Positions 1-26,009 of a DNA stretch of 64,000 nucleotides are shown in pieces. A program made the translations under genes and the position numbers. Source of the DNA: a virus. The DNA is taken from positions 124,001-188,000 of IMG/VR virus record IMGVR_UViG_3300044796_000662; one strand, written 5' to 3'. How positions within the stretch are numbered: position 1 is the first letter of the stretch; every line of letters starts with the position of its first letter. Under the pieces are notes generated by a model. That model was given only the letters and a program-made list of their open reading frames with translations, was not told the origin of the DNA and made no database searches.

Positions 1-759
1 GCCCACGACACTGAACGTACCGGAGAGCGGGACACCGATGTCCGTGACAGCGCTGGCCCAAGACCCGCCCGGAACTGACGCGGAGAACTGGCTCGTTGGC
101 GTCAACGGGAACGTCCCATTGTTGCCCGCGTGCACTGAATCGTAGACGGTGATGTTCCAGCCGTAGTAGTTCAGCCAGTTCGAACCGAGGTTGATGCCCT
201 GGATCAGGACGTTCGGACCACCGGCCACGATGGACATGGCGGTGCCGCTCGTCTCCTGAGCCAGCATCCGGATCACCTGATCGAGCAGGTTTTGGAGCGT
301 ACCGGCGCCCGTGTTCAAGCTCGGGGCGAGACCGTCCACGAACGCCACGTCGAGAGACGACGCACCGATCGCGCTCATGCCCTGTGTACCAGTCGGGGAA
401 CCGAGCTGCGTGATCAAGTTCTCAAGCAGCGCTTGGAGTGTGCCACCCGTGACCGTGTTGCTGTTTGCGAGAGTTGCGGTCGTCGGGCTCGTACCGCTGA
501 TCCTGTCCGCAGCGGAGTGCAGACGGGTCAGGTTGGTCAGGTCCGTGATGAACTTCGTGAGCTGCGCCCCGACGTTCGTTGCGGGGTTCGTGGTCCCGTC
601 CAACCAAGGGCCGTCACCGACCCAAGAGACCTGGCTCGCAAGAGCAGCTCCACCACCGCCGCCGCTGGGGGCGAGGAGTGCCGAAGCCGGAACCGTGCCG
701 ACCGAGAGCTTGCCCGGCCCCGGGTTGACCGAGGAAAGGGGGTCAGAAGTGGACGGCAT
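1..759 (-). CDS. Virion/tail-fibre-like protein, 3' end beyond window
   Basis: An open frame of 253 codons begins at an ATG on 757-759 and stays open to the window edge, so the C-terminus is missing. The start overlaps the stop of the upstream 1015-residue gene by one base (TAATG), which implies translational coupling. The N-terminus is rich in Gly, Ser and Pro, with a glycine run near residue 34. Helical stretches such as GGTLQALLENLITQLG near residue 107 look like short trimerisation segments. The visible end becomes beta-rich (AGNNGTFPLT, then LSGTFSV) and resembles the start of modules seen in the upstream genes. It is probably a fibre or baseplate appendage protein, inferred from position and composition; the family is not recognised. 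Confidence 0.7.
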   Translation of the reverse strand, partial: MPSTSDPLSSVNPGPGKLSVGTVPASALLAPSGGGGGAALASQVSWVGDGPWLDGTTNPATNVGAQLTKFITDLTNLTRLHSAADRISGTSPTTATLANSNTVTGGTLQALLENLITQLGSPTGTQGMSAIGASSLDVAFVDGLAPSLNTGAGTLQNLLDQVIRMLAQETSGTAMSIVAGGPNVLIQGINLGSNWLNYYGWNITVYDSVHAGNNGTFPLTPTSQFSASVPGGSWASAVTDIGVPLSGTFSVVG

Positions 760-3700
760 TACGTATTCCTCTTGGTGAGCAAGTTGCCCTTGATTCGGAA
801 GATGCTCGCGGTAGTCGTGTTCAAGGCAAGGTTGCTCTCGAAGTAGACCCCGTTGTCCTCGTCGAACACAGCCCAGCGGATGAGAAGAATCAGCACGAGC
901 TGACCCTTGTGTCCGTACGCCGATGCCGTGGGCAGCTCAGCGAGGATCGGCTGGATGACCTTGTGCTTGATCGGGTCCGACAGATCTTGAGCGAAGGCGT
1001 TCGGAACGTACCCAGATGGCACGCTCTTGAAGAACGTGCGCCCCTCTGCGTCGATGTCCGAGCCAGACGCGCGGTTGAACGTGACCGCTTCAGGGTCAGG
1101 CGTGAAGGGGACGAACACGGGCAGCCTGAGCATGCCGGTCGTCGCGTTGAAGTCCGCGATCGAGATAGCCGACCTGGAGTTCAACTCGTGCTCGCCCGTG
1201 TACGAGCCGCCCGAGGTGTTGTAGATGCCGCCCGTTTGCACGTAGGCCGTGGGGAACGGGTAGCCCACATCTTCCGAGGCAGGTCCCTGCGTCAGCGTGT
1301 AGAGCGACGGAGAGATGTACCGGGGAATGACCGTCTGCGTCGTCCCGATGATCGAATCGCGCCCTGTCTGCGGAGCCCGGGTCTCGTACCAGACGATCAG
1401 CTCGACTGCGGTAGGCGCAGCCGGTACCGGGCGAAGCGCCGAGTAGGAGTAGCTGAGGGTGTCCCCCGAAACCGTCCAGTCAGCCGTGTTCGTGAAGGTG
1501 GCGATGCGCCCCGTGGCGTCGAGCGTCACGGAACCTGCGATGGGCGTACCGTTCTTCTGGATCGACGTAGGAATGGCCGAAGCGCGTTCCGGGATACGGA
1601 AGGAGATCCCGTTCATCGTCCAGGAGATCGATCCGCTGTTCGCGTCAGGGAAGACGCCTCCAGAGTTCGTGATCTGAACCGACGTAGGCGACAACCATGC
1701 CGCGATCGGGAAGGAGCCGTTGTTGCCACCGTTCGCTGCCCCCGAGAAGAGAATGCGCTGGCCCACCATCTCGGGCACCATCGCCGTCAGACCTGTGATG
1801 GTCACGAGGGGCGAAGAGAACGCTGAGATCGTGGCCGCAGCGCCAGAACCCGTCAGGGCGTTCTGCGTCGCAATCGCGATCGAAGAGGTCGTGTACTGGA
1901 TCTGCGCTTCACGGTGCGTGTTGTCGATCGACTCGTTCGCGTAGGCGCTGAAGTTGTACGGCGTCCCCGAGGGGATCGCCTGCACGACCTGGAAGCTCGA
2001 CGAACCGTAGTTGTTGGTCGGCGTGCGCGTCAGACCGTTGCCGGTCGGGTAGCCCACGAGGATGTCGAGATACAGGGTCTCGTTTGAGATGCCCGTACCC
2101 GTCAGAGCGTCGAAGGTAACCGACAGGGCTGTGATGGGGATCACGCCCGTGTTCAAGACCTGTGTGATGTGGTTCTTGGCGTAAACGGTCTTCTTGCCGC
2201 TGGCGGAGCCGATGAAGAGACCCCCAAGAACGTCGTACGCGATGGCGTTGGCACCGGACGTCGCCGCCCAGTTGAACGCCGAGTACGGGTAGATCGCCAG
2301 AGACGTGAAGTCGATCGTGACCGTCGAGTTGGCCCAGCCGCCGCCCGGAACCGGGATGGCAACCGTGATGACCTCCAAGATAGGACGATCCGAGAACGTC
2401 CTCCTGGCCGCGTCGAAGGTACCGATGAGAGGGCCGGTACCATCCGAGGGGAACGGTCCAATCTCGTCACCCCAGAGCACCGTGGCGCCGTTCGAAGTGC
2501 CAGCGTACGTGTTCGTGAACCACTCTGTCGTCAGAGCGTTGTCGAACAGGTACGTCATGTTCTTCTCAAGCAGCTCGGCGTAGTTCCAGCCGACCGGAGA
2601 CACGCCCATCCGAAGATCGACGACGTCACGCGACACGATGACGTCCGAAAGCAGGCCGTCAGGACGATCCGAAGCAGCGGGCGAGACCTGGCCACCGTTC
2701 TGGTTGGTCGTGCGAGCGAAGCCGCTGGAGTTGCGGCGGAAGACTGCCATGAGCGGAATGGCGTACATGTAGCCATCCACCGTGCCGAGCGTGTTGGCGG
2801 GGTTGCCGTCGCCCGCGATCCACAAGCCGGGGTCCCCAGCGCCGCCCGCGTTCGAGTAGGTGAACAGCGTGGTCACACCGTCCGGAGCCGTAGAGACCGC
2901 CGGAACCGAGTTGGCGACCATCGTGGGGTCGTCCATCCCGTAGGGGTACGAGTAAACGTCGATCCCCGGGACGACGCGGAGGCGGTACTGGATCTGAACG
3001 CGCTTGGTGGTCTCAGCCCCGACGTTCGCGTTCAGGATGTCGTCCGCGAAGTTGAGGGACATGTCCTGCGCGGGGTCAAGCTTGACGTTGCCGTACTCCC
3101 AGATGCGGCCCGCGGGGCTCTTGCCCACCGTGCTAGGAGCCGCAGAGAGCAAGCAGCGCCACACTTCGAGGATGACGACGTCCGTACGGTTCACGCCAGC
3201 GCCCGCAGGCGGGGCCGGCATGACGAGCTGGTTCAGCCCATGCGCGGGGGGAGACCCGGCGAGGTTCGTGTTCGAGACGTTCAGAATCCAACCGTTGACC
3301 TGCGCGATGAGGTTGTTCGGGATCTGGATGGTGTTCGGGGCTCCAAAGAGAGCCGTTGCGCTTCCGGAGGGCGTGCCCGTATAGGCCGAGGTCAGGACGA
3401 TCGCGGTACCCGTAACGGAAAGCACCTTGTAGTTGACGCCCGCCTGGGACGAGAACGAGATGATGTCACCAGCGAAAAGAAAGCCCGTCTGCGAGACAGA
3501 CGCCGTGACCGAGGTGCTGGCGGAGACCGTGAACGTGCCAGAGAGGCTGCCCGCCGCAGTTCCGACGAAGATCGCCGTCGTGGGGTTGGACGAGCCTGTG
3601 AAGTCGTCCGAGATCCACCCCGAGGGCATGGCAGCACGGACGCCAGCTTCGGCGCTGCCGCCGTCGATGTCTTGCTGAAGATTCAGTTCGACATCGAGGA

Positions 3701-3806
3701 GCGGCTTGCCCGCCTGCGTGACCACCGTCTCCCAGTTGCGAGACGTGGGATCGAGGTAGCCGCTGACCGCAGGGCCATAGTTCTTGGTAACGTCGGGGAA
3801 AGTCAT
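759..3806 (-). CDS. Large virion structural protein (baseplate/tail appendage), 1015 aa
   Basis: The N-terminal 45 residues (GYLDPTSRNWETVVTQAGKP, then LLDVELNLQQDI) look like a virion attachment domain. The rest is beta-rich. Residues about 84-156 form a module (GTFTVSAS, then SSQAGVNYKV and LTSAYTGT) that closely matches residues 702-771 of the tail sheath. Residues about 652-731 form a second module (AFSSPLVTITGLT, then GGNNGSFPIAAW) that matches the first module of the 771-residue fibre protein. Residues about 730-790 (NGTPIAGSVTLD, then LSYSYSALRP) resemble another repeated virion motif. Its 3' end overlaps the next gene by one base. The role as an appendage or baseplate-attached structural protein is inferred; no enzymatic motif is visible. 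Confidence 0.8.
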   Translation of the reverse strand: MTFPDVTKNYGPAVSGYLDPTSRNWETVVTQAGKPLLDVELNLQQDIDGGSAEAGVRAAMPSGWISDDFTGSSNPTTAIFVGTAAGSLSGTFTVSASTSVTASVSQTGFLFAGDIISFSSQAGVNYKVLSVTGTAIVLTSAYTGTPSGSATALFGAPNTIQIPNNLIAQVNGWILNVSNTNLAGSPPAHGLNQLVMPAPPAGAGVNRTDVVILEVWRCLLSAAPSTVGKSPAGRIWEYGNVKLDPAQDMSLNFADDILNANVGAETTKRVQIQYRLRVVPGIDVYSYPYGMDDPTMVANSVPAVSTAPDGVTTLFTYSNAGGAGDPGLWIAGDGNPANTLGTVDGYMYAIPLMAVFRRNSSGFARTTNQNGGQVSPAASDRPDGLLSDVIVSRDVVDLRMGVSPVGWNYAELLEKNMTYLFDNALTTEWFTNTYAGTSNGATVLWGDEIGPFPSDGTGPLIGTFDAARRTFSDRPILEVITVAIPVPGGGWANSTVTIDFTSLAIYPYSAFNWAATSGANAIAYDVLGGLFIGSASGKKTVYAKNHITQVLNTGVIPITALSVTFDALTGTGISNETLYLDILVGYPTGNGLTRTPTNNYGSSSFQVVQAIPSGTPYNFSAYANESIDNTHREAQIQYTTSSIAIATQNALTGSGAAATISAFSSPLVTITGLTAMVPEMVGQRILFSGAANGGNNGSFPIAAWLSPTSVQITNSGGVFPDANSGSISWTMNGISFRIPERASAIPTSIQKNGTPIAGSVTLDATGRIATFTNTADWTVSGDTLSYSYSALRPVPAAPTAVELIVWYETRAPQTGRDSIIGTTQTVIPRYISPSLYTLTQGPASEDVGYPFPTAYVQTGGIYNTSGGSYTGEHELNSRSAISIADFNATTGMLRLPVFVPFTPDPEAVTFNRASGSDIDAEGRTFFKSVPSGYVPNAFAQDLSDPIKHKVIQPILAELPTASAYGHKGQLVLILLIRWAVFDEDNGVYFESNLALNTTTASIFRIKGNLLTKRNT
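1614..1853 (-). repeat. 'NNG[ST]F' beta module in the 1015-aa protein
   Basis: This encodes residues about 652-731. The pattern is SAFSSPLVTITGLT, VGQRILFSG, GGNNGSFPI, then PTSVQITNSGG. The same pattern occurs at 14733-14963 in the 771-residue fibre gene. It is an intragenic protein module, not a DNA repeat, because the nucleotide identity looks modest. Confidence 0.65.
3339..3557 (-). repeat. 'SQAG/AYTGT' beta module shared with tail sheath
   Basis: This encodes residues about 84-156 of the 1015-residue protein. Alternating matches to sheath residues 702-771 run through the whole stretch: GTF-V-AS, SQ-G, F-G--I-F-SQAG, Y-V--V, LT-AYTGT and TA-FG. The other copy lies at 58560-58769. Confidence 0.7.
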
Positions 3807-10128: not shown

Positions 10129-12260
10129 TCAGGCACGTAGTTCAGCGAGGTGTCTTTCGGGCCGATGCGAATGAGTGCGTGCTCTGTACCTGGCCCATAG
10201 ATAACTTGAATGGTCAGGACGTAGGTCCCAGCCGTAAATCCACGTGCGGACAGGAGAACTTGCGTCTGGGTCACTGTCTGCACCCCGGTGACCGTGACCG
10301 GCGTCGGCCCCGTAATCACGTAGATGGCCGGATCGAGCAGCCCGGCGTCGATTGTGAGCCCCTTCGAGAAGGTCACGAGCACGGCCCCCTCGTTCGGGAG
10401 GTAGGTGGCCGATTGGAGCAGCGGACCCACGGCGTTCGCTACCCAGTTGGTCGTCTGGCTGTACGGAGCCCCATCCGCCTGGATCAGCCCTGAGATCTGG
10501 AGCTGGTAGAGGTCGTTGTTCGTCGGCTCGGCGATCGTGAGGAGGATGATGTTCACCGGGGTGAGGTGCTGCCAGGTGATGCTCCCGTTATCGGGGTCCG
10601 CCACGATGAGTGGTGTGTCCAGCTCTACAACCCCAGGACTTGGGAGTCCGACCACCAAAGCGATCGTGTTCTGCCAAGAGGTGGAGATGAGGATGTAGTT
10701 CCAAAGCTCGACCGGCTCGGAACCCACAGCGAAGAGGTACGACACTTCCCCGGATCCGAGGATCGCACCGTTGTGAAAGGTGCCGAGAAGCGTCTGGACG
10801 GGTGTGGCGCTCAAGACCATCGTCGGGACGCCACCGCCAGAGAGCTGGTAGTGCACCGGATCGGACACTCTATCGAGGCGCACACCCTCCCTGAACTGGA
10901 CAAGGAGTTGCTGGTCCTGCGAGATGACTCCAGAAACGGAGACCTCTACCTCGTCGATGAGGGCGATCTCTTCATTGACGGACACGCTCGTGGCCGAGGT
11001 TCCGATGGTTACGGCATCGGAGACGTTCAACACCTCGGGCGCGAAGTGGATGTTGTCGGAGTTGCCCGCGCGTGCCGCATCCGACAACGTTACGGTGTCC
11101 GCAACGGCTCGCCGGGTGCCCGCAGAAAAAACGCCGTTCTCCGAAAGAAACACCGTCTCCGAGAGGTTGTTCGTGAAGTTGTTGTTGAAGGACAGGGCGT
11201 CCGAAACAGACACGGTATCGGACAGTGCGACCAGATGCCCGTATCTGGGGCTCGCCGAATCGGAAACACCCACCGTGTCTGATAGGGACGCTTGGGTTGC
11301 GTGGTGGGTGCTGACGGCATCTGACAAGGAAGCCGTGTCCGCGAGCGCTTGGTGAAACGCAACAGTGAAGGCCAGAGCATCGGACGCAGAGACGGTATCC
11401 GAGAGGGTGATACCACCGCCACCTCCGGCGTGCAGGGTGATGGAGATCTGGTCCGTGACCGCTACAGTCTCCGAGACAAACGGTCGTGCGCGGTACGCAC
11501 GCGTGAGCGAATCCGAGACCGACACGCTGTCCGTGACAGTGTTGAAGTACGCGTGGTACTCCGAGACCGAGTCGCTCGCTGTGACAGTGTCGGAAACGGC
11601 AACCGAGGTTCTGTGCAAAAGGGACGTGGAGTCCGAGACAGAGACGCTATCCGAGACCGTTGGATGTGTGTGGTGCTGAAGACCTACTGCATCTGTGACC
11701 GTCACCGTTTCCGAGACCGGCGCGTGCCCCACCTGATGCAAGGTGGTGATCGAGTCCGAGACGCTGACCGTGTCAGAGCCCGTGACGTACGCCGAGTAGA
11801 GGATGAAGAGCGAGTCCGAGACCGACACACTGTCCGACACACCCACGACGTTCGAGGAGGTCGTCGTGAACGTCGAATTGAAGGTCTGCGAGTTGCCGGC
11901 CAAGTCCGTGACAGAGATGGCCACCGCATTCGAGCCGCTCGCCCAATTCGGGTGCGTGTCGATCGTGACCGTGCAGGTCGTATCGCTGAAGATGATCGAG
12001 CTTCCGTACGTGGGCAGAAAGTCCCCGCCAGCGATGATCGGGTTGCCCCCTATGTTCACGGACAGCGACCACGGGTCCAAGTGCGACGGAGAGCTAACCT
12101 GGAACGACACCGTGGCCGAGTCGGAAACTCCCGTGGCACCGTTGGCTGGACTCAGGTTGGCGATCGAAGGTGTGGTCGCATCGAACGCACGGCTAGCGTA
12201 CGGCGCAGTGCCGTAAGTATCGAGCCCGTACGTTCCTCCCCAGACGACCGTGTTGGGCAT
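10125..12260 (-). CDS. Repeat-containing tail fibre/adhesin-like protein, 711 aa
   Basis: The start is an ATG with the Tyr/Gly motif YGLDTYGTAPY, followed by a bacterial Ig-like domain (LSPANGATGVSDSATVSF, residues 36-130). Residues about 138-420 consist of roughly 14 units of about 20 residues built on VSDSVSVSDS followed by 10-12 variable, often aromatic or His-containing residues. After the repeats, residues 430-711 form beta domains (ISQDQQLLVQFREGVRLD and LPNEGAVLVTFSKGL) of Ig-like type. It overlaps the next gene by ATGA. The regular repeats suggest an extended stalk, with binding by the terminal domains. This is inferred, because no enzymatic residues are seen. Confidence 0.8.
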   Translation of the reverse strand: MPNTVVWGGTYGLDTYGTAPYASRAFDATTPSIANLSPANGATGVSDSATVSFQVSSPSHLDPWSLSVNIGGNPIIAGGDFLPTYGSSIIFSDTTCTVTIDTHPNWASGSNAVAISVTDLAGNSQTFNSTFTTTSSNVVGVSDSVSVSDSLFILYSAYVTGSDTVSVSDSITTLHQVGHAPVSETVTVTDAVGLQHHTHPTVSDSVSVSDSTSLLHRTSVAVSDTVTASDSVSEYHAYFNTVTDSVSVSDSLTRAYRARPFVSETVAVTDQISITLHAGGGGGITLSDTVSASDALAFTVAFHQALADTASLSDAVSTHHATQASLSDTVGVSDSASPRYGHLVALSDTVSVSDALSFNNNFTNNLSETVFLSENGVFSAGTRRAVADTVTLSDAARAGNSDNIHFAPEVLNVSDAVTIGTSATSVSVNEEIALIDEVEVSVSGVISQDQQLLVQFREGVRLDRVSDPVHYQLSGGGVPTMVLSATPVQTLLGTFHNGAILGSGEVSYLFAVGSEPVELWNYILISTSWQNTIALVVGLPSPGVVELDTPLIVADPDNGSITWQHLTPVNIILLTIAEPTNNDLYQLQISGLIQADGAPYSQTTNWVANAVGPLLQSATYLPNEGAVLVTFSKGLTIDAGLLDPAIYVITGPTPVTVTGVQTVTQTQVLLSARGFTAGTYVLTIQVIYGPGTEHALIRIGPKDTSLNYVPE
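11001..11849 (-). repeat. About 14 tandem 'SDSVSVSDS' repeats
   Basis: The repeats occur as 60-66 base units in the DNA, with recurring plus-strand cores like GAGTCCGAGACCGACAC. Units differ mainly in the 10-12 codons between cores. One unit carries a five-glycine insertion (LHAGGGGGI). The periodic acidic pairs could bind Ca2+, but this is inferred. Confidence 0.8.
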
Positions 12261-12263
12261 TCG

Positions 12264-12791
12264 TCACCAGGTCGCATCGACAACGATGTCCACGAGAGCG
12301 TGAACACCACACCTGGAGCCGGCGTACTGAGCGGCGGTTGGGTCTGGAGCGCCAGTCACGACCCAATAGACGTAGGTGGGCTGACTCACGCAGTCCGGGT
12401 CACGAGCCCGCATGAGGTAGTAAATGGTGACGCTCGAACCGCCCGTTGGGATGGGCAGCGTTCCAGCGTCCGCCTGTGTTCCGCCCGAGCCTAGCTGGCC
12501 GCCGAAGAGGGAGGTCGAGTGTCCCACACGATGCAAGCTGGAGTCTTGCTTCGCCCCCAATTCAGCGTAGTGCTGACCAGTTCCGGCATAGGTTGAAGTC
12601 GTTCCAGAGCCAGCGGGAGTGGTGGCGCTGTTCAAGCTTGTGGTCTTAGCGATGCGGCCCTGCGCATCGGGGATGCTGCCCGCCTTGTAGTAAGCGTTCC
12701 CGCGCGATCCTGTAGGGTATCCGGTCTGTCCCGCTGGCGAGTTGCCAAGATTCTGGACCATCCGAGATTGTGACTTGCCGATGTCCGCCAT
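12264..12791 (-). CDS. Unknown fibre-region protein, 175 aa
   Basis: I do not recognise this family. The first 100 residues are Gly/Ser/Thr-rich and low in hydrophobics (GNSPAGQTGYPTGSRGNAYY), as in flexible virion linkers. The last 60 residues form strands (SSVTIYYLMRARDPDCV, then PTYVYWVVTG) with two cysteines, ending in ALVDIVVDATW. It lies 3 bases after a fibre gene and 6 bases from the next one, within the appendage operon. It is likely a small structural component or an adaptor between fibre subunits. Confidence 0.65.
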   Translation of the reverse strand: MADIGKSQSRMVQNLGNSPAGQTGYPTGSRGNAYYKAGSIPDAQGRIAKTTSLNSATTPAGSGTTSTYAGTGQHYAELGAKQDSSLHRVGHSTSLFGGQLGSGGTQADAGTLPIPTGGSSVTIYYLMRARDPDCVSQPTYVYWVVTGAPDPTAAQYAGSRCGVHALVDIVVDATW

Positions 12792-12797
12792 GGCCCC

Positions 12798-15113
12798 TCA
12801 GAAAGTTGGCGTGGAAGCGCCGTCCCAAGGCCCGGCGCAGAACGTAGCGTTAGGGGAGGTGCCACTGGACAGTACAATCCATTTCAGGCTGTCCAACGTC
12901 TGATTGACTTGAAGACCCTGCGTGATCATCAGCCATCTGGGGGTCCCCTTGCGCGCTCGGGGCCAACCGGCTACACCGCCCATCCAAATCCAGACTGGCT
13001 CACGTACGTACGTAAGCGTGGGGGTAGTGGCGAGCTGGTCGGGGTACCCCCAGTTGACCTGGCACAGAGACCCCACCGCATAGTCGTACAGATACGCGGT
13101 GCTCATAGCGACCATGTAGTCACCAAACACAGGGTTCCCGTTGACACCGTAAGGGTTATTCAGACCTCGACGCCTGAAACAACGCCACACCCCGTTATAC
13201 GAGCCGTTCGTGAAGCACGTCTGGCCGAGGTTGTAGGAATCGATCGCAGAGGAGTTAACACTGAGGTTCTGAGTACGGTTGAAACCACTCAGAGTATACC
13301 CGCCGAAGGTTTGGGCGGCATACGGGTCGAGGTCCCCATCCTCTGTGTTGTCCAATCTTTGGAAACCTATGCCGACATACCCAGTCGATTGGCACGACTG
13401 GTAGTAGCCCCATGTGCCGTCTTGAGAGACGCCCTGCTGCTCGATGTTGTTCGCGCACAAAAGCTGCGCTCGACCAGGGTTGGTAGGATTGAGGTTGCTG
13501 CACCAGTACGACGCACTCGTACCGACAGAACCAGCCCCGCCTGTTCCGATGACGGCCATAGTCGCAGTCGCAAGTCCGCCGGGGCCTAGAGGGAAGCCGT
13601 TGGCAGTGGGGTTACCCGTAGAGCCCCCAGGACAGACAGTAGAAGACACCTGAGATAGAGCATTGGCCATCGTGGAGAACCGACCAGTCGATGTCGTCGT
13701 GGCGCCCTCAGTCGAAGTGCTCTGGTCGATGCACTGGTAGTAAATGTGCCCTTGGGTAGCGTTGAGGCGCCACCAGACCATCTCACGAACGTAGGCGATC
13801 GGAGGACCAGCCGTGCTCGTTACTGTGGCCGCTGAAAAGGAGCCCGTGACCGTATCGGTAGTGGAGTTGTTCCACCCGTAGAGGTTGCCCGCCCAGCCGC
13901 TCGAACCTGTACCCACGACACGCGGAGCAATGACCAAGAATCCCGTGCCGCCAGAGGAATCAGGCATGTACCCGAGAAGCTCGCCTTGAGCGCCCGTGCT
14001 CGACTGCGTGACGTTCTCACCGCGGATGAAGGTACCCGTCGAGACGTTCGTCCCGATCGGAATCTTCATGGTCGTTGGGCCTTGGAGACAAATCCACTGT
14101 CCGCCACCACCGGAACCCTGCAAGTAGCTCGGGTAGATGTGCTGTAGAGGATCGGTCTCAACCCATTGGAGATTGGGGTTGTTGCCGTCGCTGGCAACAC
14201 CACCGGGGTTGTAGAGCAGGACGTTCGAAGCGCTCACGTACCCAGCGATCAGGAACGTACCGTTGTTGCCGCCCGCCAAGCTCGAAGGGTTGAGGATGGT
14301 GATTCGGCGCCCAACGTCCGCAGCCGTGAAGCCTGCGAAGGTTGACGTGGTGAAGTTGATGAGAGTGCTCGTCCCCGAGGTTACCGTAGAGAAGGCACCA
14401 ATTGAGCCGTCGTTCCCACCGTACTGCTCTGTGATGGTCAGGCTGGTGTTACCGCTCTCCGCAACGAGCTGCGGTGCGTAAACGATGACCTGCGAGGAGG
14501 TCGCCGAGACGATACGGAAGCTGCCGTTGTTGTTACTGATCGAGCCTGTGATCGTAGCGTACCGCCCAGGCGAACCGTTGACCGTGAAGCCGGACACACC
14601 CGTGATCGTGGCCTGGCCCGTCGAACCGCTGGCCGCCCCGATGACAGCCGCACCGCTGCTCGCGCCACCACCGGACACGTTCGATAGGTGCACTGCTCCG
14701 CCAACACCCCAAAGGTCGAGCGCTGAGTTGCGCAAGAGTGCCCAGGTCAAGCCGGAGTCCGTCGATACGCCGCTGGTGTTGTAGATCGTGACCGAGGTCG
14801 CCGAGACGTACGAGGTGATGAGGAACGTGCCGTCGTTGCCGCCGTGCGAACCTCCCGAGATGGTGATGTACTGACCGACGCAACCGGGGGTCATGTTCGT
14901 CAGGCCACCCAACGTGACAGTGGGGCTTGAGAACGCGGTGACCGTACCGGCCGCCCCGCTCTGAAGGATGTTCGTGCAGCCGGAGCTTTGCCCGTTTCCC
15001 CCAGACATGTACTTCCAACCGGCCGCCAACATCGTGCGAGTGAGCTTCCAGATGGCGTGACTCGTCTCTCCGGAGTTCTGAAGAACGAGGTTGACTGTTG
15101 CTGCGTTGGCCAT
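12798..15113 (-). CDS. Tail fibre-like protein, paralogue A with three NNG modules, 771 aa
   Basis: It is a tandem paralogue of the next upstream gene. Both start with MANA, then carry AIWKLTRTMLAAGWKY, LWGVGGAVHL, IYPSYLQ, the run from GPTTMKIPIGTNV to FIRGENVTQS, TGAQGELLG, and YDYAVGSLCQVNWG (the paralogue has YDFGAAVFPLQTNTG), ending in GPWDGASTPTF. It differs by an extra beta module at residues 51-127 inserted between SSGCTN and NSALDLW. Two more copies lie at 165-230 and 238-317. The shared head and tail suggest identical attachment and oligomerisation, with different surface modules. A role in receptor binding or as a virion decoration fibre is inferred. Confidence 0.8.
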   Translation of the reverse strand: MANAATVNLVLQNSGETSHAIWKLTRTMLAAGWKYMSGGNGQSSGCTNILQSGAAGTVTAFSSPTVTLGGLTNMTPGCVGQYITISGGSHGGNDGTFLITSYVSATSVTIYNTSGVSTDSGLTWALLRNSALDLWGVGGAVHLSNVSGGGASSGAAVIGAASGSTGQATITGVSGFTVNGSPGRYATITGSISNNNGSFRIVSATSSQVIVYAPQLVAESGNTSLTITEQYGGNDGSIGAFSTVTSGTSTLINFTTSTFAGFTAADVGRRITILNPSSLAGGNNGTFLIAGYVSASNVLLYNPGGVASDGNNPNLQWVETDPLQHIYPSYLQGSGGGGQWICLQGPTTMKIPIGTNVSTGTFIRGENVTQSSTGAQGELLGYMPDSSGGTGFLVIAPRVVGTGSSGWAGNLYGWNNSTTDTVTGSFSAATVTSTAGPPIAYVREMVWWRLNATQGHIYYQCIDQSTSTEGATTTSTGRFSTMANALSQVSSTVCPGGSTGNPTANGFPLGPGGLATATMAVIGTGGAGSVGTSASYWCSNLNPTNPGRAQLLCANNIEQQGVSQDGTWGYYQSCQSTGYVGIGFQRLDNTEDGDLDPYAAQTFGGYTLSGFNRTQNLSVNSSAIDSYNLGQTCFTNGSYNGVWRCFRRRGLNNPYGVNGNPVFGDYMVAMSTAYLYDYAVGSLCQVNWGYPDQLATTPTLTYVREPVWIWMGGVAGWPRARKGTPRWLMITQGLQVNQTLDSLKWIVLSSGTSPNATFCAGPWDGASTPTF
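14163..14963 (-). repeat. Three NNG[TS]F beta modules in fibre paralogue A
   Basis: The copies encode residues 51-127 (14733-14963), 165-230 (14424-14621) and 238-317 (14163-14402). Each has the pattern VG-x-I-x-I..G, NNGTF.I, then S.V.LYN. The first copy is absent from paralogue B and best matches the module of the 1015-residue protein. Confidence 0.7.
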
Positions 15114-15122
15114 GGTGCTCTC

Positions 15123-17192
15123 TCAGAAAGAAGGAGTCGTCACGCCGTCCCATGGCCCGACAACCATCTGTGAAATTGCGGATGCGGAGGTCAACACAAT
15201 CCACTGCAAAGAGTCGAACGTCGAGTTGACGCTTGCCCCCTGACAGAGCTGTAGCCACCTGGGGGTGCCTTTACGCATTCGACCGGACGCAAGCTGTGCA
15301 GTGTAGGGGGAGAGATAGAGCCATAGTTGGTCACGCACATAGGTCGTGGTGACTGCGGTTCCAACTTGATCTGGGTTGCCCGTGTTTGTTTGAAGCGGAA
15401 ACACAGCGGCCCCGAAGTCGTACAGCATCATCACGCTGAACCAGTTGTAGGTCTCTCCCGAAAGACCTCGACGGCGGAAACCCTTGAACCCGTGACCGCC
15501 GGTAGAGTTAGCGATCCATGTTTGGTCTGTACGGCAATTGTCCGTAGCGCTGCCAGCGCCGTTGATCGTCACCGTATCCGCTGATCTGTTAGCCGCTGCG
15601 TTCAGCGAACCTGACCAGTGCCCTTGATGGACGTACGGATCGAGATCCCCGTCCTCCTGGTTGTCCAACCTCAAGTACGAGAGCATCTGGTACCCGGTCG
15701 AGTTGCACGACTGGAGATAGAACCAGGTCCCGTCCGCCGAGACTCCTTGCTGAGGCACACAGTTGGCCGCAATGAGCTGCGCCCTTCCAGGAGATGTGGG
15801 AGACACAACCGACCAGTAGCTCCAGTAGCTACCACCGCCGCCTTGCCCTGGCTGGCCGAGAACTGCGTACGTGCCCGTCCACGAAGTCGAGAACCCGTTG
15901 GTCGTGCAGTTACCGCCCGTAGACCCGCCAGGAGCGAGGATCGAGGTGACCTGGCTCAACGTGCCCGCCATCGTCGAGAGGCGGCCCGTGCTTGCAGTCG
16001 TCGCCGACTCCGTGGACGAGTTCTGATCGATCCTCTGATGCCACATGAGCCCAGAGTTGTTGTAGTTCTTGTAGATGCAGGTCTCGGCGATATACGCGAT
16101 GGGCGTCGAGCTGGCAGGGGTTGTAATGGTGACCCCCGAGAAGGCCCCCGTGATGGTGTCCGTGTTGGCCGAGTTGTTCCAGCCGTACGTCGCGAACGGA
16201 CCGGCTTGCACACCCGTCCCCACGACTCTTGGAGCGACGACGAGGTAGCCGGTACCACCGGAGGTGTCCGTCACGATCCCAAGAAGCTCCCCCTGCGCGC
16301 CGGTCGTGCTCTGTGTGATGTTTTCACCACGGATGAAAGTGCCGCCCACGGGCACGTTCGTACCAATGGGGATCTTCATGATGGTCGGCCCCTGAAGGAC
16401 GATCCAACACCCGTTACCCGTGATGTTCTGGATGTAGCTCGGGTAGATCTGGTTCAGCGGCGAGTATTCGACCCACTGAAGGGTTGGGTTCTGCGAGTCG
16501 TTGATCGTGACTGTCGGAGTGCACTCAGGCCCAGCATGCAGAAGGATGTGGTTGTTGGCCACGTAGCCGGCAATCAGATATGTGCCGTTGTTCCCGCTAC
16601 CCGAGTTGAGGATCGTGATCATACGACCAACGTCCGTGGTCGTGAATCCAGTGAACGAGCTGGTCGTGAAGTTGATGAGGGTGCTCTGCCCTGTGGTCGT
16701 GGTGGAGTACGTCGTGATGGAGCCATCGGCTCCGCCGTACTGCTCGACCACGGCCAAACTGGAGTTGCTCGTCTCCGCCACGAGTTGAGGAGCGAACACC
16801 GTGACCGTTGTTCCAGTCTGCGCCGTGATGCGGAAGCTGCCATTGTTGCCGCTCCCCGACCCCGTGATGGTCAGGTAGTCGCCAACGGAAGCCGACGTGA
16901 AGCTACTGACTCCCGTGATGGTCGAGGCGCCCGTCGATGCGACCGCAGCCCCGATGCTCACTCCCGAGCCGCTGCCGGTACCACGGCTCGCGTTCTGGAG
17001 GTTGACGGCCCCGTCTACGCCCCACCAGTCCAGAGCCGCGTTGTTGGAGTGATCGACCGTGCCGCTGTTGCCGTTGCCGCTCGCCTTGTACTTCCACCCA
17101 GCCGAGAGCATGGCCCGGGAGAGCTTCCAAATGGCGCTGAACTGATCGACCGAGGTGTTCAGTGTGTAGTTGAGTACGTATGCGTTTGCCAT
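15123..17192 (-). CDS. Tail fibre-like protein, paralogue B with two NNG modules, 689 aa
   Basis: It is similar to paralogue A over almost its whole length: AIWKLSRAMLSAGWKYKAS, LDWWGVDGAVNLQNAS, the FIRGENITQ block and the ending GPWDGVTTPSF. It has two NNG-type modules (residues about 87-145 and 155-240: GNNGSFRITA and GNNGTYLIAGY) rather than three. At residue 46 it passes directly from TVDHSN to NAALDWW, where paralogue A carries the extra module. It starts 6 bases after the 399-residue gene. It is probably a fibre or decoration protein; the ligand is unknown. Confidence 0.8.
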   Translation of the reverse strand: MANAYVLNYTLNTSVDQFSAIWKLSRAMLSAGWKYKASGNGNSGTVDHSNNAALDWWGVDGAVNLQNASRGTGSGSGVSIGAAVASTGASTITGVSSFTSASVGDYLTITGSGSGNNGSFRITAQTGTTVTVFAPQLVAETSNSSLAVVEQYGGADGSITTYSTTTTGQSTLINFTTSSFTGFTTTDVGRMITILNSGSGNNGTYLIAGYVANNHILLHAGPECTPTVTINDSQNPTLQWVEYSPLNQIYPSYIQNITGNGCWIVLQGPTIMKIPIGTNVPVGGTFIRGENITQSTTGAQGELLGIVTDTSGGTGYLVVAPRVVGTGVQAGPFATYGWNNSANTDTITGAFSGVTITTPASSTPIAYIAETCIYKNYNNSGLMWHQRIDQNSSTESATTASTGRLSTMAGTLSQVTSILAPGGSTGGNCTTNGFSTSWTGTYAVLGQPGQGGGGSYWSYWSVVSPTSPGRAQLIAANCVPQQGVSADGTWFYLQSCNSTGYQMLSYLRLDNQEDGDLDPYVHQGHWSGSLNAAANRSADTVTINGAGSATDNCRTDQTWIANSTGGHGFKGFRRRGLSGETYNWFSVMMLYDFGAAVFPLQTNTGNPDQVGTAVTTTYVRDQLWLYLSPYTAQLASGRMRKGTPRWLQLCQGASVNSTFDSLQWIVLTSASAISQMVVGPWDGVTTPSF
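16473..16934 (-). repeat. Two NNG[TS]F/Y modules in fibre paralogue B
   Basis: The copies encode residues about 87-145 (16758-16934) and 155-240 (16473-16730). They match modules two and three of paralogue A in order, so the pair predates the gene duplication. Confidence 0.65.
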
Positions 17193-17198
17193 CTGATC

Positions 17199-18398
17199 TT
17201 ACCCCCAAGTGATGACCACGGAGGCGTAGCTGCAAGTGACTGCGTTGGAGCCGGAGACGCTGCCCATCTTGAGCTGCACCTCGTAGAGCTTCGAAGCCGA
17301 AGGAAGCGTCAGAGTCGCGGTAACAAGCGTGGGGGTCAGCGCCGAGCTGCTAAGGGGAAAGGTGGGGCTCGACGTGACGACGTTGCCATCTGTCACGTTG
17401 TAGAGCTGGATTACCGCGGCAACGCTTGCCGAAGTCGTGACCAACACTGCATTGAAGGTCGCCTGCGCGTTCGCCGGGTAGACCGTTGGGTTGATCTGAC
17501 GGTTGCCGATCCGCTGGTATGTGGTCGTCGAGTTGACCTGGACCCCGGCAACGAGGGGCAGCTCGATGGAGGTCGCCACCGTCAGGGGGTCTGTCCGGCC
17601 GACGTCGAGCACGTCCCAGTTCGTGCCGTCGAACGCAACCTCAACCGAGTAGTACGTGGTCCCGTTCGGAGGAGCGGAAAGCGACAGGATGATGGACCCG
17701 CCCACCCCGTTCAGGAGGTTGAACCCGCCGCAGCCGGCCGTGAGCCCGATCTTGTACTTGAAGCGCTTGCCCGATTGGGGTGTGGGAGAGGTGCTAGCGA
17801 TCTGCTCCTGGTACAGACCCGTGCCCGTGAGGTTCAGGTTACGCCAGGGGTAGTCGGTCCCATCGACAATGGTGACCGTGGAGGCTCCCGAGCCCGTGAA
17901 GTTGACGGTGACAGGAAGCCCTACGAACCGGCCAACCGTCGCCCGCAGGAACCGTAGCAGACCATCGACGAAGACGTTCGTGCTGGCCGCCTGAGAGCCC
18001 TCCCAGCCCGCGTTCTGCGCGGCGGAAGAACCCCCGATGTTGGTCATGTTGCCGGTCATGCCGGCGCTGGGGAGGACGTAACCGTACGTGTCGGCGATGG
18101 CGAAGAACTTGACGTCCGTCGTCACCACCGGGCCGGAATCGGTCCGGACAAGCTTGATGACGTACACGCCGTCGAGCGTCGGGGCGTTAATGTTCGCCGT
18201 CTGACTGGTCGGGTTGTTGATGGTCGGAGCCGAGGACAGGGGCCCGGGCCAACCAACGATGGACCACGACCAAGACGTAGCGCCAGCGCCCGCCGCATCG
18301 GTGAAGTTCACCTGCGTGCCAGTCACGTAGCCGAGCGCCGACTGACCTGCGGTGGTCGTCGTGAGGCCCTGTGAGAACTGGATCTGGGCGCTGGGCAT
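17199..18398 (-). CDS. Virion protein with PKD-like N-terminal domain, 399 aa
   Basis: Residues about 20-105 resemble a PKD/Ig-like domain: GTQVNFTDAAGAGATSWSWS, INNPTSQTANINAP and DGVYVIKLVRTD. Helix-containing residues follow (NVFVDGLLRFLRATVGRFVG near 142-162). Then come two beta domains, ending in YEVQLKMGSV and CSYASVVITWG. These resemble jelly-roll strands seen in phage appendage proteins. It sits at the head of the duplicated fibre pair. It is probably an adhesin or a fibre-attachment protein; the ligand and exact family are unknown. Confidence 0.7.
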   Translation of the reverse strand: MPSAQIQFSQGLTTTTAGQSALGYVTGTQVNFTDAAGAGATSWSWSIVGWPGPLSSAPTINNPTSQTANINAPTLDGVYVIKLVRTDSGPVVTTDVKFFAIADTYGYVLPSAGMTGNMTNIGGSSAAQNAGWEGSQAASTNVFVDGLLRFLRATVGRFVGLPVTVNFTGSGASTVTIVDGTDYPWRNLNLTGTGLYQEQIASTSPTPQSGKRFKYKIGLTAGCGGFNLLNGVGGSIILSLSAPPNGTTYYSVEVAFDGTNWDVLDVGRTDPLTVATSIELPLVAGVQVNSTTTYQRIGNRQINPTVYPANAQATFNAVLVTTSASVAAVIQLYNVTDGNVVTSSPTFPLSSSALTPTLVTATLTLPSASKLYEVQLKMGSVSGSNAVTCSYASVVITWG

Positions 18399-19846: not shown

Positions 19847-22800
19847 TCAGGCGCTCGCGTAAGTGATGTTGAAATTACCGAGGGTGATGTATTCGACCTG
19901 GGCCGCTGTGATGTCGTGCGCTCCGGTCTGGCCGCTCACGATGTATGTCACCGTGTAGACGTGATTCGTGGGCACGTCCGCAGGGGATCCTGCGTTCGAG
20001 AGCGAGACGACCACGTGATTCGCGGTGAGCAAGAGACGCTGGGCCAAGATGGCAGCCGGAGTGGTGAAGCCCTGAGCTATGAGGGTGGCGTCGTCCGAGT
20101 ACCCGAGGATGCTTGCGCCCTCGCTACCGATGATCCACCCCTGGTTGGCGGCAAGACAGACTTGTGCGAGCGAAGCCGCGTTCGTGAGCTGCACGTCATC
20201 CTGGAAGACGCCGTGCGTCTGCGTCGGCAAACCCCCGTTGTCGGTCGTGGGGTTCTCCAGAGCAGCCGTCAGGATGAAGGCGTTGTTACCACCGATGTCC
20301 AGCGAGGCTACGGACTCGAAGGCAGAGTTGACCGCCTCTCGAAGCTTGATCGACCCGTCCGCGTACCCCATCGTCGCGAAGGGCAGGACGTTGAAGGACA
20401 CACCCGACTGGTCATTGATGGCGCCGTCCACGTTCGACTGCGCTACACCCTGGCCGATGAGCTTCGTGTTGAGCACGATGCTCACCGCCGACCGGATCTC
20501 GGCGTCCACGGTGGACTGGCTCGCGCCCGCCTTGAGCTGGACAGTGGTCTCGATGTTGACGTTGTTGTCGATCGCCTGCTTCACGAGCACGTCGGCCGTG
20601 ACGTGGCGCTTCGTGTTCACGACCTCTTGGAGCTGCTGGAGCAGGTCGTTGATGACGTAGGTGACCGTGAAGTTCTCGTCGTGCGTGTAGTCCACGCTCA
20701 CGGTCTGGCCGCTGACGATCGTGGAGGTGGCCGTCCGGATGATGAGCGCCGGCGTCGTGGGCGTTCCCTGGATGATGTCGTAGTCGGGGGTCGGGCTGGA
20801 CGGACCGTTGTACTCGATCGTTCTGTCTGCCGAGTAGACGGCGATCGTGTCCGTGTTGATGCCCACGTTGCTGAGGGGCACCTGGAAGAACCCGATGATG
20901 ACGTGCGTCTCGTTGTTGACCTGGATCGGCGAACCGCTCGGAATGCCGTTGTACTGGACAAGGGTGAGGTTGTCGGTCGCGATCGTGGACTGCCCCGTGA
21001 TGAGCGGGTCGTCAGACTGGTCGAAGATGATGTTGTGCGTGAGGTCGAGCGGTCCGGCAATCTCGCCGACAACCGAGACGATCCTGCGCACGGGCTGGTA
21101 GCTGAAGGTGAAGGTGTTGACCGACTGGAAGCGGTAGTCCACCTCGATGACGTCGTCGATGTGGGTAGTCGGCTGATCCGGTAGCGCAGCGTTGAGCTGG
21201 AATGTGTTGTAGGAGAGGATCGTGGCTCCCGTGAGGTCGTACGCGATCCCTTGCGTCACGTTGAACACGCCCTGACCAGGGCCGCTCAAGATCTCCGTGA
21301 TGGGGGTGCTCGGAGTCACACGCGAGTCGAGCACCTGGAAGACGAGCGTCGAGATGTTGATGATCTCGACAGGGATGTTGAGCGCGAGCTGGTAGGTGAA
21401 GGCGAACGTCTCCGTGATGTTGCGCTCGTTGACGCCCTGGACCCAGATGTCCACCTTGCCGCCGATGTGCTTGTGGCGAACCGGGTCGTAGTCCCGCATC
21501 ATGAGGGGATCGCCGCTCTTGACGACCAGCGCCTTGATGATGCCGATCTGCGAGGCTGCCGTGAGGGCGTAACCGCCTTGGGTCCCTGTATCGACGGCCT
21601 GGAAGCCGAGCATGGCACGAGCGGCTAGATCCTCGTTGGTCTCCACGTCCGTGCCGAAGACCGTTGAGGACTCGTTGACGACACTGACGCCCGCCACACC
21701 AGAGATCGAGGTGATGGTGCCTGCGGACCTATTACCGTCAGCGCCCGCCTGCGTGGCCACGATGTCGGCCACAATCTCGTAGCGTTGCGTCGAGAAGTTG
21801 TAGTACGCCTGGGAGTTCTCCGCGGGCAGCGTGTACGAACCTGCGATGAGGAACGGCCACGCAGGGAGGTTCTGCGAGCTGTCAGCCGACGCGGTCACGA
21901 TGGTGCCGGCTGGGATGACGATGTCCAGAAGGGGACGAGTCGGCGTGTAGATGACCACCTGACCGACCGCAGGAGCGCCAGGCAAGCGTGTCTTGTCTAC
22001 GTTCGCCGCGAGCTTGTCGTACTGCGTGTCGATGAGCGACTGCGTCTGGTCGTCGGTCGTGGCGCCGATGGCTGCCTTGAGGGCCGACTTGTACGGGCTC
22101 GACGCCACCGCATCCGGCATCCCGTTGCCCGTGGTGTCGTCGATCTGAATGAGCGTGAGGAAGCTCTGCGACCTGTGGATGAAGTCGAGCAGGAACCAGA
22201 GACGCTCAGCCTCGCTAGCGAACGGGTCGATCGAGACGTCACGGGACGTGGAGCCTGGGATGAGTGCGACGCTCGCGTTCACCCGTTGGATGGCTGTGAT
22301 GTAGTCGGTCGTGATCTGCGCTGCGGTGCGGCCCGGCAAGTCCAGGATCGCCGTGTCGATGGTGAGAGGTGTGCCGAGTACCTCTTGCGAGTACGGGGTC
22401 TCGACCTCCTGGTTCAACACGCTGTCGAAGAAGACCGCCGTGACCACGTAGTAGAGCGGGTCACTGTTCGAGACATTGGCGAACTGGTCGGAGTTGATGA
22501 TCCCCGTGCCGCCGCTTCGGGTGTGCGTGAACGAGATGAAGTTGTTGAACTGGTAGCTCTGGAGGTTGCTGCTGTACCGCAGCTTCGGCCCGAGCGCACC
22601 GGCCGGGTAGGACTTGTCGAAGCGGACGTTGAGTAGGTTGCCGAAGTTGTCCGTCTCCGTCACCTGGATGCGGATGTTCTTGAGCGTGGTGTTGTCCCAA
22701 GTCGCAATATCTTGCGCGGAAGAGACGTCATCCTCTTCGTAGACCGTGGGCGTGGTCACGGGGGACTGATTGACGAGGAAGTACCCGGTGGCGCCGCCCG

Positions 22801-23332
22801 GAGTCGTAGAGGCGTAGAAGTTGAACCCCTGGAACGTCGTGCTCGGCGGTACCACCAGCGTTGCTGGGTTCGAGACGAGCGACGACGGGTTCGTGATCGT
22901 TGCGGTGTTTGAGACCAGGTTCGGCTGGATGGCCTGGATGTTGACGGAGCCGTTCGCGCGCACCACGCGCACGCCCGTGGGGATGAGCGTGGACACGTCG
23001 TTGACCGTGAGCACGTACGTCACGGTCGCCGTAGAGGTTGCGCTCACGGCACCGAGGATGTCGATCGCTCGGATGGCGATGGTGTTGACGCCAAGGGCGA
23101 GCGCGAGACCCGAGGGGTAGGAGTTCGGGTTCGGGATCGTGAAGGTCTGCTGGTCGAACAGGATGAGCGTGGGGTCGGACGAAAACGCCGACCCGTTCAC
23201 GGAGATCTGAAGCGCCACGGTATCGACCGTGACTGTTCCCGTGATCACGATCGCGCTCTCGTTCGTGGAGAACACGAGCGACGTGGTGTATCCGAGTCCG
23301 TTTCTGAGTGCGATTTGGGGAGCGGTTGCCAT
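19847..23332 (-). CDS. Baseplate J-like wedge protein, 1161 aa
   Basis: The centre (about 450-620) has the Baseplate_J signature: VVIYTPTRP, PAGTIVTAS, VVATQAGADGNRSAGTI (with the G..GN motif), VVNESSTVFGTDVETNEDLA and AARA. This is the family of P2 gpJ and Mu gp47, which form the wedge ring. The N-terminal 110 residues look like an Ig-like domain (NGLGYTTSLVFSTNE, then INVSGSA-type strands). Residues 115-320 look fibronectin-like. The C-terminal third resembles repeated strands (SGQTVSVDYTHDENFTV). At 1161 residues it is far longer than the 300-500 of classic gpJ. It sits between gp25-like and gpI-like genes, the usual order. Confidence 0.85.
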   Translation of the reverse strand: MATAPQIALRNGLGYTTSLVFSTNESAIVITGTVTVDTVALQISVNGSAFSSDPTLILFDQQTFTIPNPNSYPSGLALALGVNTIAIRAIDILGAVSATSTATVTYVLTVNDVSTLIPTGVRVVRANGSVNIQAIQPNLVSNTATITNPSSLVSNPATLVVPPSTTFQGFNFYASTTPGGATGYFLVNQSPVTTPTVYEEDDVSSAQDIATWDNTTLKNIRIQVTETDNFGNLLNVRFDKSYPAGALGPKLRYSSNLQSYQFNNFISFTHTRSGGTGIINSDQFANVSNSDPLYYVVTAVFFDSVLNQEVETPYSQEVLGTPLTIDTAILDLPGRTAAQITTDYITAIQRVNASVALIPGSTSRDVSIDPFASEAERLWFLLDFIHRSQSFLTLIQIDDTTGNGMPDAVASSPYKSALKAAIGATTDDQTQSLIDTQYDKLAANVDKTRLPGAPAVGQVVIYTPTRPLLDIVIPAGTIVTASADSSQNLPAWPFLIAGSYTLPAENSQAYYNFSTQRYEIVADIVATQAGADGNRSAGTITSISGVAGVSVVNESSTVFGTDVETNEDLAARAMLGFQAVDTGTQGGYALTAASQIGIIKALVVKSGDPLMMRDYDPVRHKHIGGKVDIWVQGVNERNITETFAFTYQLALNIPVEIINISTLVFQVLDSRVTPSTPITEILSGPGQGVFNVTQGIAYDLTGATILSYNTFQLNAALPDQPTTHIDDVIEVDYRFQSVNTFTFSYQPVRRIVSVVGEIAGPLDLTHNIIFDQSDDPLITGQSTIATDNLTLVQYNGIPSGSPIQVNNETHVIIGFFQVPLSNVGINTDTIAVYSADRTIEYNGPSSPTPDYDIIQGTPTTPALIIRTATSTIVSGQTVSVDYTHDENFTVTYVINDLLQQLQEVVNTKRHVTADVLVKQAIDNNVNIETTVQLKAGASQSTVDAEIRSAVSIVLNTKLIGQGVAQSNVDGAINDQSGVSFNVLPFATMGYADGSIKLREAVNSAFESVASLDIGGNNAFILTAALENPTTDNGGLPTQTHGVFQDDVQLTNAASLAQVCLAANQGWIIGSEGASILGYSDDATLIAQGFTTPAAILAQRLLLTANHVVVSLSNAGSPADVPTNHVYTVTYIVSGQTGAHDITAAQVEYITLGNFNITYASA

Positions 23333-25229: not shown

Positions 25230-26009
25230 CTAACTCCTCGCGTGACGGGTCAGGTACTCAGCAGCTCGTAGAAGAAGGTCAGGGACGTCCTTGAAAAACC
25301 CCAAGCCTCTGTTGCAATGGGCGCACAAGAGGGATCGCATTTTGCCGGTGCGGTGGTCGTGATCGGCATGAACAGAATTTGGGTTTTTCCCGGTCTTGGA
25401 CATCGGGGTGCGACAGATGGCGCAGCACCCTTCCTGCGCCTGCCACATCTGCTCGAACTGCCCAGACGACCATCCAGAACGGCGACGCCTCTCAGCGTCA
25501 AGCCGTTCCTTTCGGTACACTTCGTCGTTTTGGTACTTGGCCCCGTTCACCTCTGACGTACAACTTCGGCAGACGGAAGTACGACAGCCCTCCCCGTAAA
25601 AGGCCCCACGGGGCAGATCGTTTCTACAGACCGAGCAAACCTTAGTCGGCTTGGAGGGTTTGGGGGTCCGACCAGAGGGACGTCTTGCAATACCCTGTCG
25701 CAGCAAGACATTCCGAATGGTGCCAACCGATAGCTTGTGATGTGTTGCGAGGGTCTCCAGAGACAAACCCCTTTGGTACCCTTCTGCAATAGCCAGAGCG
25801 GTCTCTGAACTGACCTTCGATCCCACTGGTCGCGTTAGACGACCATGCACCTCTTCGGCGCTGAGAGGGTAGTCCCTCAACCAAACGCTCAAGGATGCGG
25901 TGGAGACACCCGTGCATCTTGAAATGTCTGCAAGAGACAGGCGTTCTTCCAGACGTAGCCGGAGAGCTTCCGCCTTCTCCTCGGACGTTCTACGGACCCC
26001 TCTGGGCAT
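25230..26009 (-). CDS. HNH endonuclease, endonuclease VII-like, 259 aa
   Basis: The C-terminal domain has the endonuclease VII/HNH layout: CCAIC (about 195-199), HADHDHRTGKMRSLLCAHCN (214-233) and RGLGFFKD. C196, C199, C229 and C232 are the likely Zn ligands and the DHDH set the catalytic metal site. A second cysteine cluster lies at 125-150 (CSVC...CRTSVCRSC). Two helix-turn-helix-like segments lie at about 24-43 (SLADISRCTGVSTASLSVW) and 83-105, probably for site recognition. The gene lies between two baseplate genes, a typical site for a phage free-standing homing endonuclease. It is read as a mobile intruder rather than a virion gene. Base composition appears somewhat less GC-rich than in its neighbours. 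Confidence 0.85.
   Translation of the reverse strand: MPRGVRRTSEEKAEALRLRLEERLSLADISRCTGVSTASLSVWLRDYPLSAEEVHGRLTRPVGSKVSSETALAIAEGYQRGLSLETLATHHKLSVGTIRNVLLRQGIARRPSGRTPKPSKPTKVCSVCRNDLPRGAFYGEGCRTSVCRSCTSEVNGAKYQNDEVYRKERLDAERRRRSGWSSGQFEQMWQAQEGCCAICRTPMSKTGKNPNSVHADHDHRTGKMRSLLCAHCNRGLGFFKDVPDLLLRAAEYLTRHARS

What the first reader, a model, noticed from the sequence alone, without database searches (positions are those of the whole stretch)
14733..14963. Clean insertion of one module distinguishes two tandem fibre paralogues
Paralogue B runs from VDHSN straight to NAALDWW, whereas paralogue A has about 80 extra residues at that point. The insert best matches a module in the 1015-residue protein, not the other modules of paralogue A. 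This is direct evidence for module gain after gene duplication.
Basis: seen in the sequence. Interest (0 to 1): 0.7.

Follow-up and report, generated by a model that had tools for sequence, protein, structure and literature searches.

The report
Extra beta-barrel module in phage fibre paralogue
One of two neighbouring, duplicated tail-fibre-like genes of a giant phage carries an extra 78-residue beta-barrel building block that its twin lacks; relatives show that the block was most likely gained rather than lost, and that such blocks are repeatedly slotted into this protein family, a neat but not unprecedented case of phage protein mosaicism.

Summary
Gene A (771 aa) and gene B (689 aa) are tandem paralogues. 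A carries an in-frame insert (residues ~46-128; module core 14730-14963) where B has a ~6-residue linker. Within this phage the insert is closest to a module of the 1015-aa protein (58 bits; a 506-aa protein 45; A's own modules 30 and 8).

Among 34 family members in A's phage and relatives, only A and two proteins of one related phage have this module at this site; 30 have a 15-20-residue linker. Parsimony on the body tree gives 2 changes for gain, 3 for one gain plus losses. The insert clade (97/81) falls outside both core-module clades, so it is probably not a tandem copy, though AU tests exclude this only weakly. The 1015-aa protein as donor is unresolved.

New here: the insert apparently spread between paralogues in the related phage (body and insert trees conflict), and further module insertions occur in the family, some inside modules. 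The module is confidently predicted as a six-stranded barrel resembling E1-FCCH and the glycan-binding barrel of phage endosialidases; probably a spacer or glycan-binding module. A known kind of event in an undescribed family.

The parts
12798..15113 (-). Gene A, 771 aa: N-cap, inserted NNG module, two core NNG modules, conserved body
14730..14978 (-). The insert in A (residues ~46-128); module core 14730-14963, six-stranded beta-barrel prediction
14421..14654 (-). A core module M2 (groups with B M2)
14154..14399 (-). A core module M3 (groups with B M3)
12801..14084 (-). A body domain used for the gene tree
15123..17192 (-). Gene B, 689 aa, tandem paralogue without the insert
17043..17060 (-). 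Empty site in B (TVDHSN linker)
16737..16970 (-). B core module M2
16464..16715 (-). B core module M3
15126..16394 (-). B body domain
759..3806 (-). 1015-aa protein (C) that carries the most similar NNG module in this genome
1611..1844 (-). NNG module of the 1015-aa protein
3342..3566 (-). Second module type (type 2) in the 1015-aa protein; the same type lies in the longer inserts of R993 and R959
12264..12791 (-). 175-aa gene next to A; its homologue adjoins the A-orthologue R993 (47% over 156 aa)
17199..18398 (-). 399-aa gene upstream of B; a gene with a related C-terminus lies upstream of R959 in the related phage
19847..23332 (-). Baseplate wedge subunit (PHROG 6, E 1.3e-23), placing A and B near the baseplate genes

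Best explanation
A and B are tandem paralogues of a baseplate-adjacent tail-fibre (or receptor-binding) protein family of huge phages. Each has a ~38-residue N-terminal cap (probably the attachment end), a neck of small six-stranded beta-barrels (NNG modules; none to three in the family) and a ~420-residue conserved body. After the A-type and B-type genes had separated, the A lineage gained one further NNG barrel between cap and neck, probably by copying from a pool of such modules in phage structural genes (the 1015-aa and 506-aa proteins carry close members). In a related phage a longer version of the insert was also copied between the A-orthologue and the B-orthologue. The added barrel most likely lengthens the neck or adds a weak glycan contact. 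Shown: presence, homology, position, absence in outgroups, conflict between body and insert trees, high-confidence barrel prediction. Inferred: fibre role, copying as the mechanism, spacer or glycan-binding function.
For: Collinear alignment with one large gap. Copies of the module in other structural genes of the genome. Site occupied by this module only in A, R993 and R959; 15-20-residue linker in 30 others. Body tree ((R993,A)99/97,(R704,(R959,B)99/96)100/98)100/100; fewest changes 2; insert bearers as one clade by body rejected, p 0.001. Insert tree joins R993 and R959 (99/94) against the body tree. A and R993 are followed by homologous genes. Insert GC3 0.87 against 0.71 in the rest of A (p 0.002), nearer the 1015-aa gene's 0.83. 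Barrel model pLDDT 94.9; structural matches to E1 FCCH (Z up to 7.9) and endosialidase barrels (Z 7.2-8.2). Further insertions of FCCH-like, NNG and other modules in orthologue pairs. A baseplate wedge gene lies nearby.
Against: Losses in B and R704 cost only one step more. 77 alignment columns cannot resolve the donor; AU tests exclude neither descent from M3 (p 0.17) nor A1+R993 as a vertical pair (p 0.22). GC3 as high as the insert's also occurs in 78-codon windows of B, and against A's own N-terminal part p is only 0.02. No curated family names A or B as a fibre; the full-length A model is poor (pLDDT 44.8). Fold matches have Z near 8, where a common arrangement is possible.
Confidence: 0.65

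Rival explanations
1. The insert was present in the common ancestor of the A, B, R704, R959, R993 clade and was lost cleanly from B and R704.
For: R959, the closest body relative of B (99/96), does carry an insert at this site. Precise loss of a folded module by recombination is possible.
Against: Needs three changes against two. R959's insert groups with R993's, and both share extra modules that A lacks, as expected for transfer inside the related phage. The linkers of B and R704 resemble the short linker of the outgroups.
Confidence: 0.2
2. The insert is a local tandem duplication of A's own module M2 or M3 followed by divergence.
For: M3 is recognisably similar to the insert (45%, E 3e-9). 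The AU test does not reject insert+M3 (p 0.17).
Against: The insert lacks the two-residue loop insertion seen in M2 and M3 of A and B and shares first-strand and GLT.M motifs with the 1015-aa and 506-aa modules. The tree puts it outside the M2 and M3 clades; insert+M2 is rejected at p 0.04.
Confidence: 0.12
3. The module came from another phage or from a host gene rather than from within the genome.
For: Equally similar modules (51%) occur in other huge phages, most of which carry several module-bearing genes.
Against: The best match found inside the genome is in the same structural gene region, and GC and GC3 fit the phage. The module itself was not searched in bacterial genomes.
Confidence: 0.3
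4. Assembly or frame artefact.
For: The window comes from a metagenomic virus record.
Against: The insert is in frame, and the same site holds a homologous insert in contigs L032 and L034 of other metagenomes.
Confidence: 0.01

Closest known systems
Domain mosaicism of phage tail fibres and tail spikes (Nat Commun 2023, PMC10684548)
   Same: Structural tail proteins gain, lose and share domains; [quoted passage not shown]
   Different: Here the same small barrel is shared between tandem paralogues and other structural genes of one genome, and the paralogue pair gives with/without states; the family has no Pfam match and no named PHROG.
Evolved Dit proteins and CBM decorations of 936 lactococcal phages (PMC6669499)
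   Same: An internal insertion adds a small beta domain to a conserved tail protein, and the same module type decorates several virion proteins.
   Different: Those are BppA-like carbohydrate-binding modules with shown host binding; here it is a different barrel in huge phages without binding data.
Beta barrel of phage endosialidases (K1F, phi92; PF12195)
   Same: The predicted insert fold superposes on K1F residues 423-508 and phi92 255-340 (Z 7.3 and 8.2); the K1F barrel holds a sialic-acid site and is a host-discrimination hotspot (PMC12632334).
   Different: No sequence match to PF12195 for the insert, and no catalytic propeller found in A or B by the searches run here.
E1_FCCH domain (PF16190)
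   Same: Similar predicted fold (UBA1 179-259, Z 7.9); a true PF16190 member is inserted elsewhere in this same protein family (L033_5992, 30.2 bits).
   Different: The insert itself gives no PF16190 hit, and profile comparison is inconclusive (probability 7%).

Membership tests
E1_FCCH (PF16190) | Sequence score above the Pfam cut-off | tested here: not met
   The insert and seven sister modules give no PF16190 match up to E 5; hhalign against FCCH-like modules gives probability 7%
E1_FCCH (PF16190) | Six-stranded FCCH-type barrel fold | tested here: inconclusive
   AF2 pLDDT 94.9, six strands; UBA1 FCCH Z 7.9, rmsd 2.3, 75 aligned; Z under 8 may be a common arrangement
Endosialidase beta barrel (PF12195) | Sequence match to PF12195 | tested here: not met
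   No hit for any of eight NNG modules; only the different type-2 module of the 1015-aa protein reaches E 0.18, below cut-off
Endosialidase beta barrel (PF12195) | Glycan binding | not testable with these tools
   Needs expressed protein and a glycan binding assay
Phage tail fibre / receptor-binding protein | Gene near baseplate genes | tested here: met
   Baseplate wedge gene 19847-23332 is four genes upstream of B; homologues of it and of the 291-aa and 174-aa genes lie upstream of family members in L047/L048 too
Phage tail fibre / receptor-binding protein | Match to a named fibre family | tested here: not met
   No Pfam match for A or B beyond chance level; PHROG matches only to unnamed families in a few relatives
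Phage tail fibre / receptor-binding protein | Located on the virion tail and needed for adsorption | not testable with these tools
   Needs virion proteomics, microscopy or adsorption assays
Module gain after gene duplication | Outgroups lack the module at the site and bearers are nested among non-bearers | tested here: met
   the loss alternative is one step longer

The most novel reading that the evidence does not exclude
Small barrel modules (NNG, FCCH-like, type 2 and others) act in these huge phages as a shared pool within the genome that is repeatedly copied into a few acceptor points of tandem fibre paralogues (cap/neck junction, a late loop of a module, neck/body junction), even into one another, so that fibre length and binding valency are tuned by domain-level copying between genes of one genome.
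Probability: 0.3. Interest if true: 0.6.

Novelty: new member of a known kind. Interest (0 to 1): 0.42.

Why it matters
Most evidence for domain shuffling in phage fibres compares different phages. Here a tandem pair, its three relatives in a second phage and about 28 further family members give a with/without series in which gain, position and spread between paralogues can be polarised. It makes a testable case of how fibres of uncultured huge phages grow by small barrels, and it adds an undescribed fibre-like family and module for annotation.

Tried and rejected
Full-length structure of A with 11 sequences: pLDDT 44.8, not used. PDB sequence search with the module profile returned almost only antibody light chains over about 28 residues: judged a chance likeness of VTISG...NN. 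Phage-record tblastn with A, B or single modules: only a weak module hit in Virus Rctr197k. Bacterial genomes: no relative of the body. Nesting of other modules inside the NNG insert of R993/R959: joining the halves raises the HMM score by 3.8 bits in R993 (just above all 200 shuffles) and not significantly in R959, so it is kept only as a suggestion. The same test supports nesting in L033_5992 (68.6 against at most 66.6 in 300 shuffles) but not clearly in two L041 proteins, where the orthologue alignments carry the case. Flanking direct repeats as insertion scars: none convincing. Artefact rejected because independent contigs carry a homologous insert.

Full report
What was checked. Gene A (12798-15113, minus strand, 771 aa) and gene B (15123-17192, minus, 689 aa) lie head to tail and are collinear paralogues. 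The only large difference is at the stated place: A residues ~46-128 stand against a six-residue stretch TVDHSN in B. The flanks GWKY..GNG and N(A/S)ALD.WGV.GAV are conserved in both.

What the insert is. Searching the insert against its own 362,937-base record gives the 1015-aa protein first (54%, E 1.6e-18), then an ORF outside the window at 204564-204797 (49%), then A's third module (45%), an ORF at 121879-122046, and B's modules. An iterated HMM finds eight copies: three in A, two in B, and one each in the 1015-aa, 506-aa and 411-aa proteins. The insert, the 1015-aa and the 506-aa modules share a first strand GAA.T(I/V/L)..F and lack a two-residue loop present in the core modules M2 and M3 of A and B. 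AlphaFold2 on 61 modules gives a confident six-stranded model (pLDDT 94.9). The best structural matches are the barrels of phi92 and K1F endosialidases (Z 8.2 and 7.3) and the FCCH domain of ubiquitin E1 (Z 7.9). No Pfam family matches the insert. In K1F the matched residues 423-508 include positions of a sialic-acid site that governs host discrimination, which is a lead for function, not a test.

Relatives and polarity. Scans of viral contigs with the A/B alignment and then with the body alignment gave relatives in about a dozen other phage contigs, and 33 body sequences went into a maximum-likelihood tree. A pairs with R993 of contig L032 (99/97); B pairs with R959 of the same contig (99/96), with R704 outside them (100/98); the five form one clade (100/100). 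Gene order agrees: A and R993 are each followed by homologous 175/167-aa genes, and a gene with a related C-terminus lies upstream of B and of R959. The stretch between cap and WG motif is 15-20 residues in B, R704 and 28 others, but ~94 in A, 265 in R959, 286 in R993 and 160 in L040_6056 (A's value). Only A, R993 and R959 have an NNG module there; L040_6056 has two modules of another type. The fewest changes are two, against three if one early gain was followed by losses in R704 and B. Gain in the A lineage after the A/B split is therefore favoured, not proved.

Spread between paralogues. The bodies of the three insert bearers are not one clade (p 0.001), yet the inserts of R959 and R993 are sisters (99/94) with A's insert outside. 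They also share an extra stretch of about 150 residues that A lacks and that contains a second module type. The simplest reading is that the insert was copied between the A- and B-orthologues inside that phage's lineage. The AU test does not exclude A's and R993's insert as a vertical pair (p 0.22). In phage L041 two paralogues with distant bodies carry sister third modules (99/82) that their orthologues in L033 lack, a second likely case.

A wider habit. Orthologue pairs show more insertions: L041_8255 against L033_3994 (an NNG module before the last strand of another NNG module), L041_10538 against L033_5992 (different modules in the same loop), L040_6056 against L035_7426 (cap/neck junction), and L039 against L041_4473 (an FCCH-like module before the body). 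The module in L033_5992 is a true E1_FCCH by Pfam (30.2 bits, cut-off 29.5). NNG modules occur in other large ORFs of these phages as well.

Donor. Inside this genome the 1015-aa module is the best match, and third-position GC of the insert (0.87) is nearer that gene (0.83) than the rest of A (0.71), but modules of other phages are equally similar (51%). The tree does not resolve the sister, and insert + M3 is not rejected.

Function. A and B lie a few genes from a baseplate wedge gene, and homologues in L047/L048 keep such neighbours. A tail-fibre or receptor-binding role is the best inference, with no named family to confirm it. The extra barrel would extend the neck or add a glycan contact.

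Verdict. Real, mostly correctly read, and a well-polarised example of a known kind of event in an undescribed family.

Noticed in passing
window 10125-12260 (-): 711-aa protein with many V(S/T)DSVSVSDS-type repeats, PHROG 12240 (unknown function, E 2.8e-10).
   Followed up: no
L015:4907-13228 (-), genome 192907-201228: 2773-aa protein with a long array of short repeats of the form LPPxDxVxAGYGQPxQxA among other domains; read from the translation.
   Followed up: no
window 25230-26009 (-): 259-aa ORF with CxxC clusters and [24 protein letters not shown], looks like an endonuclease VII / HNH gene lying among structural genes; by eye only.
   Followed up: no
L014:15656-17077 (+), genome 119656-121077: 473-aa lipoprotein-like ORF on the opposite strand with DSG-rich stretches and VDATNVYWT repeats, of a kind I recall from myxobacterial lipoproteins; may hint at the host. 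From memory, not tested.
   Followed up: no
window 56373-60872 (-): 1499-aa ORF carries the type-2 module of the 1015-aa protein (E 9e-15), so a second module type is also shared between genes of this phage.
   Followed up: partly
L033:5992-8235 (+) and L014:10295-14857 (-): Pfam E1_FCCH domains: one nested in an NNG module of a fibre paralogue (above cut-off), one just under cut-off (29.0 against 29.5) in a 1520-aa protein of this phage.
   Followed up: partly
L042:2452-4530 (+), L043:2336-4504 (+): The body HMM match of these two paralogues is broken into two or three pieces, so insertions may also reach the body domain.
   Followed up: no
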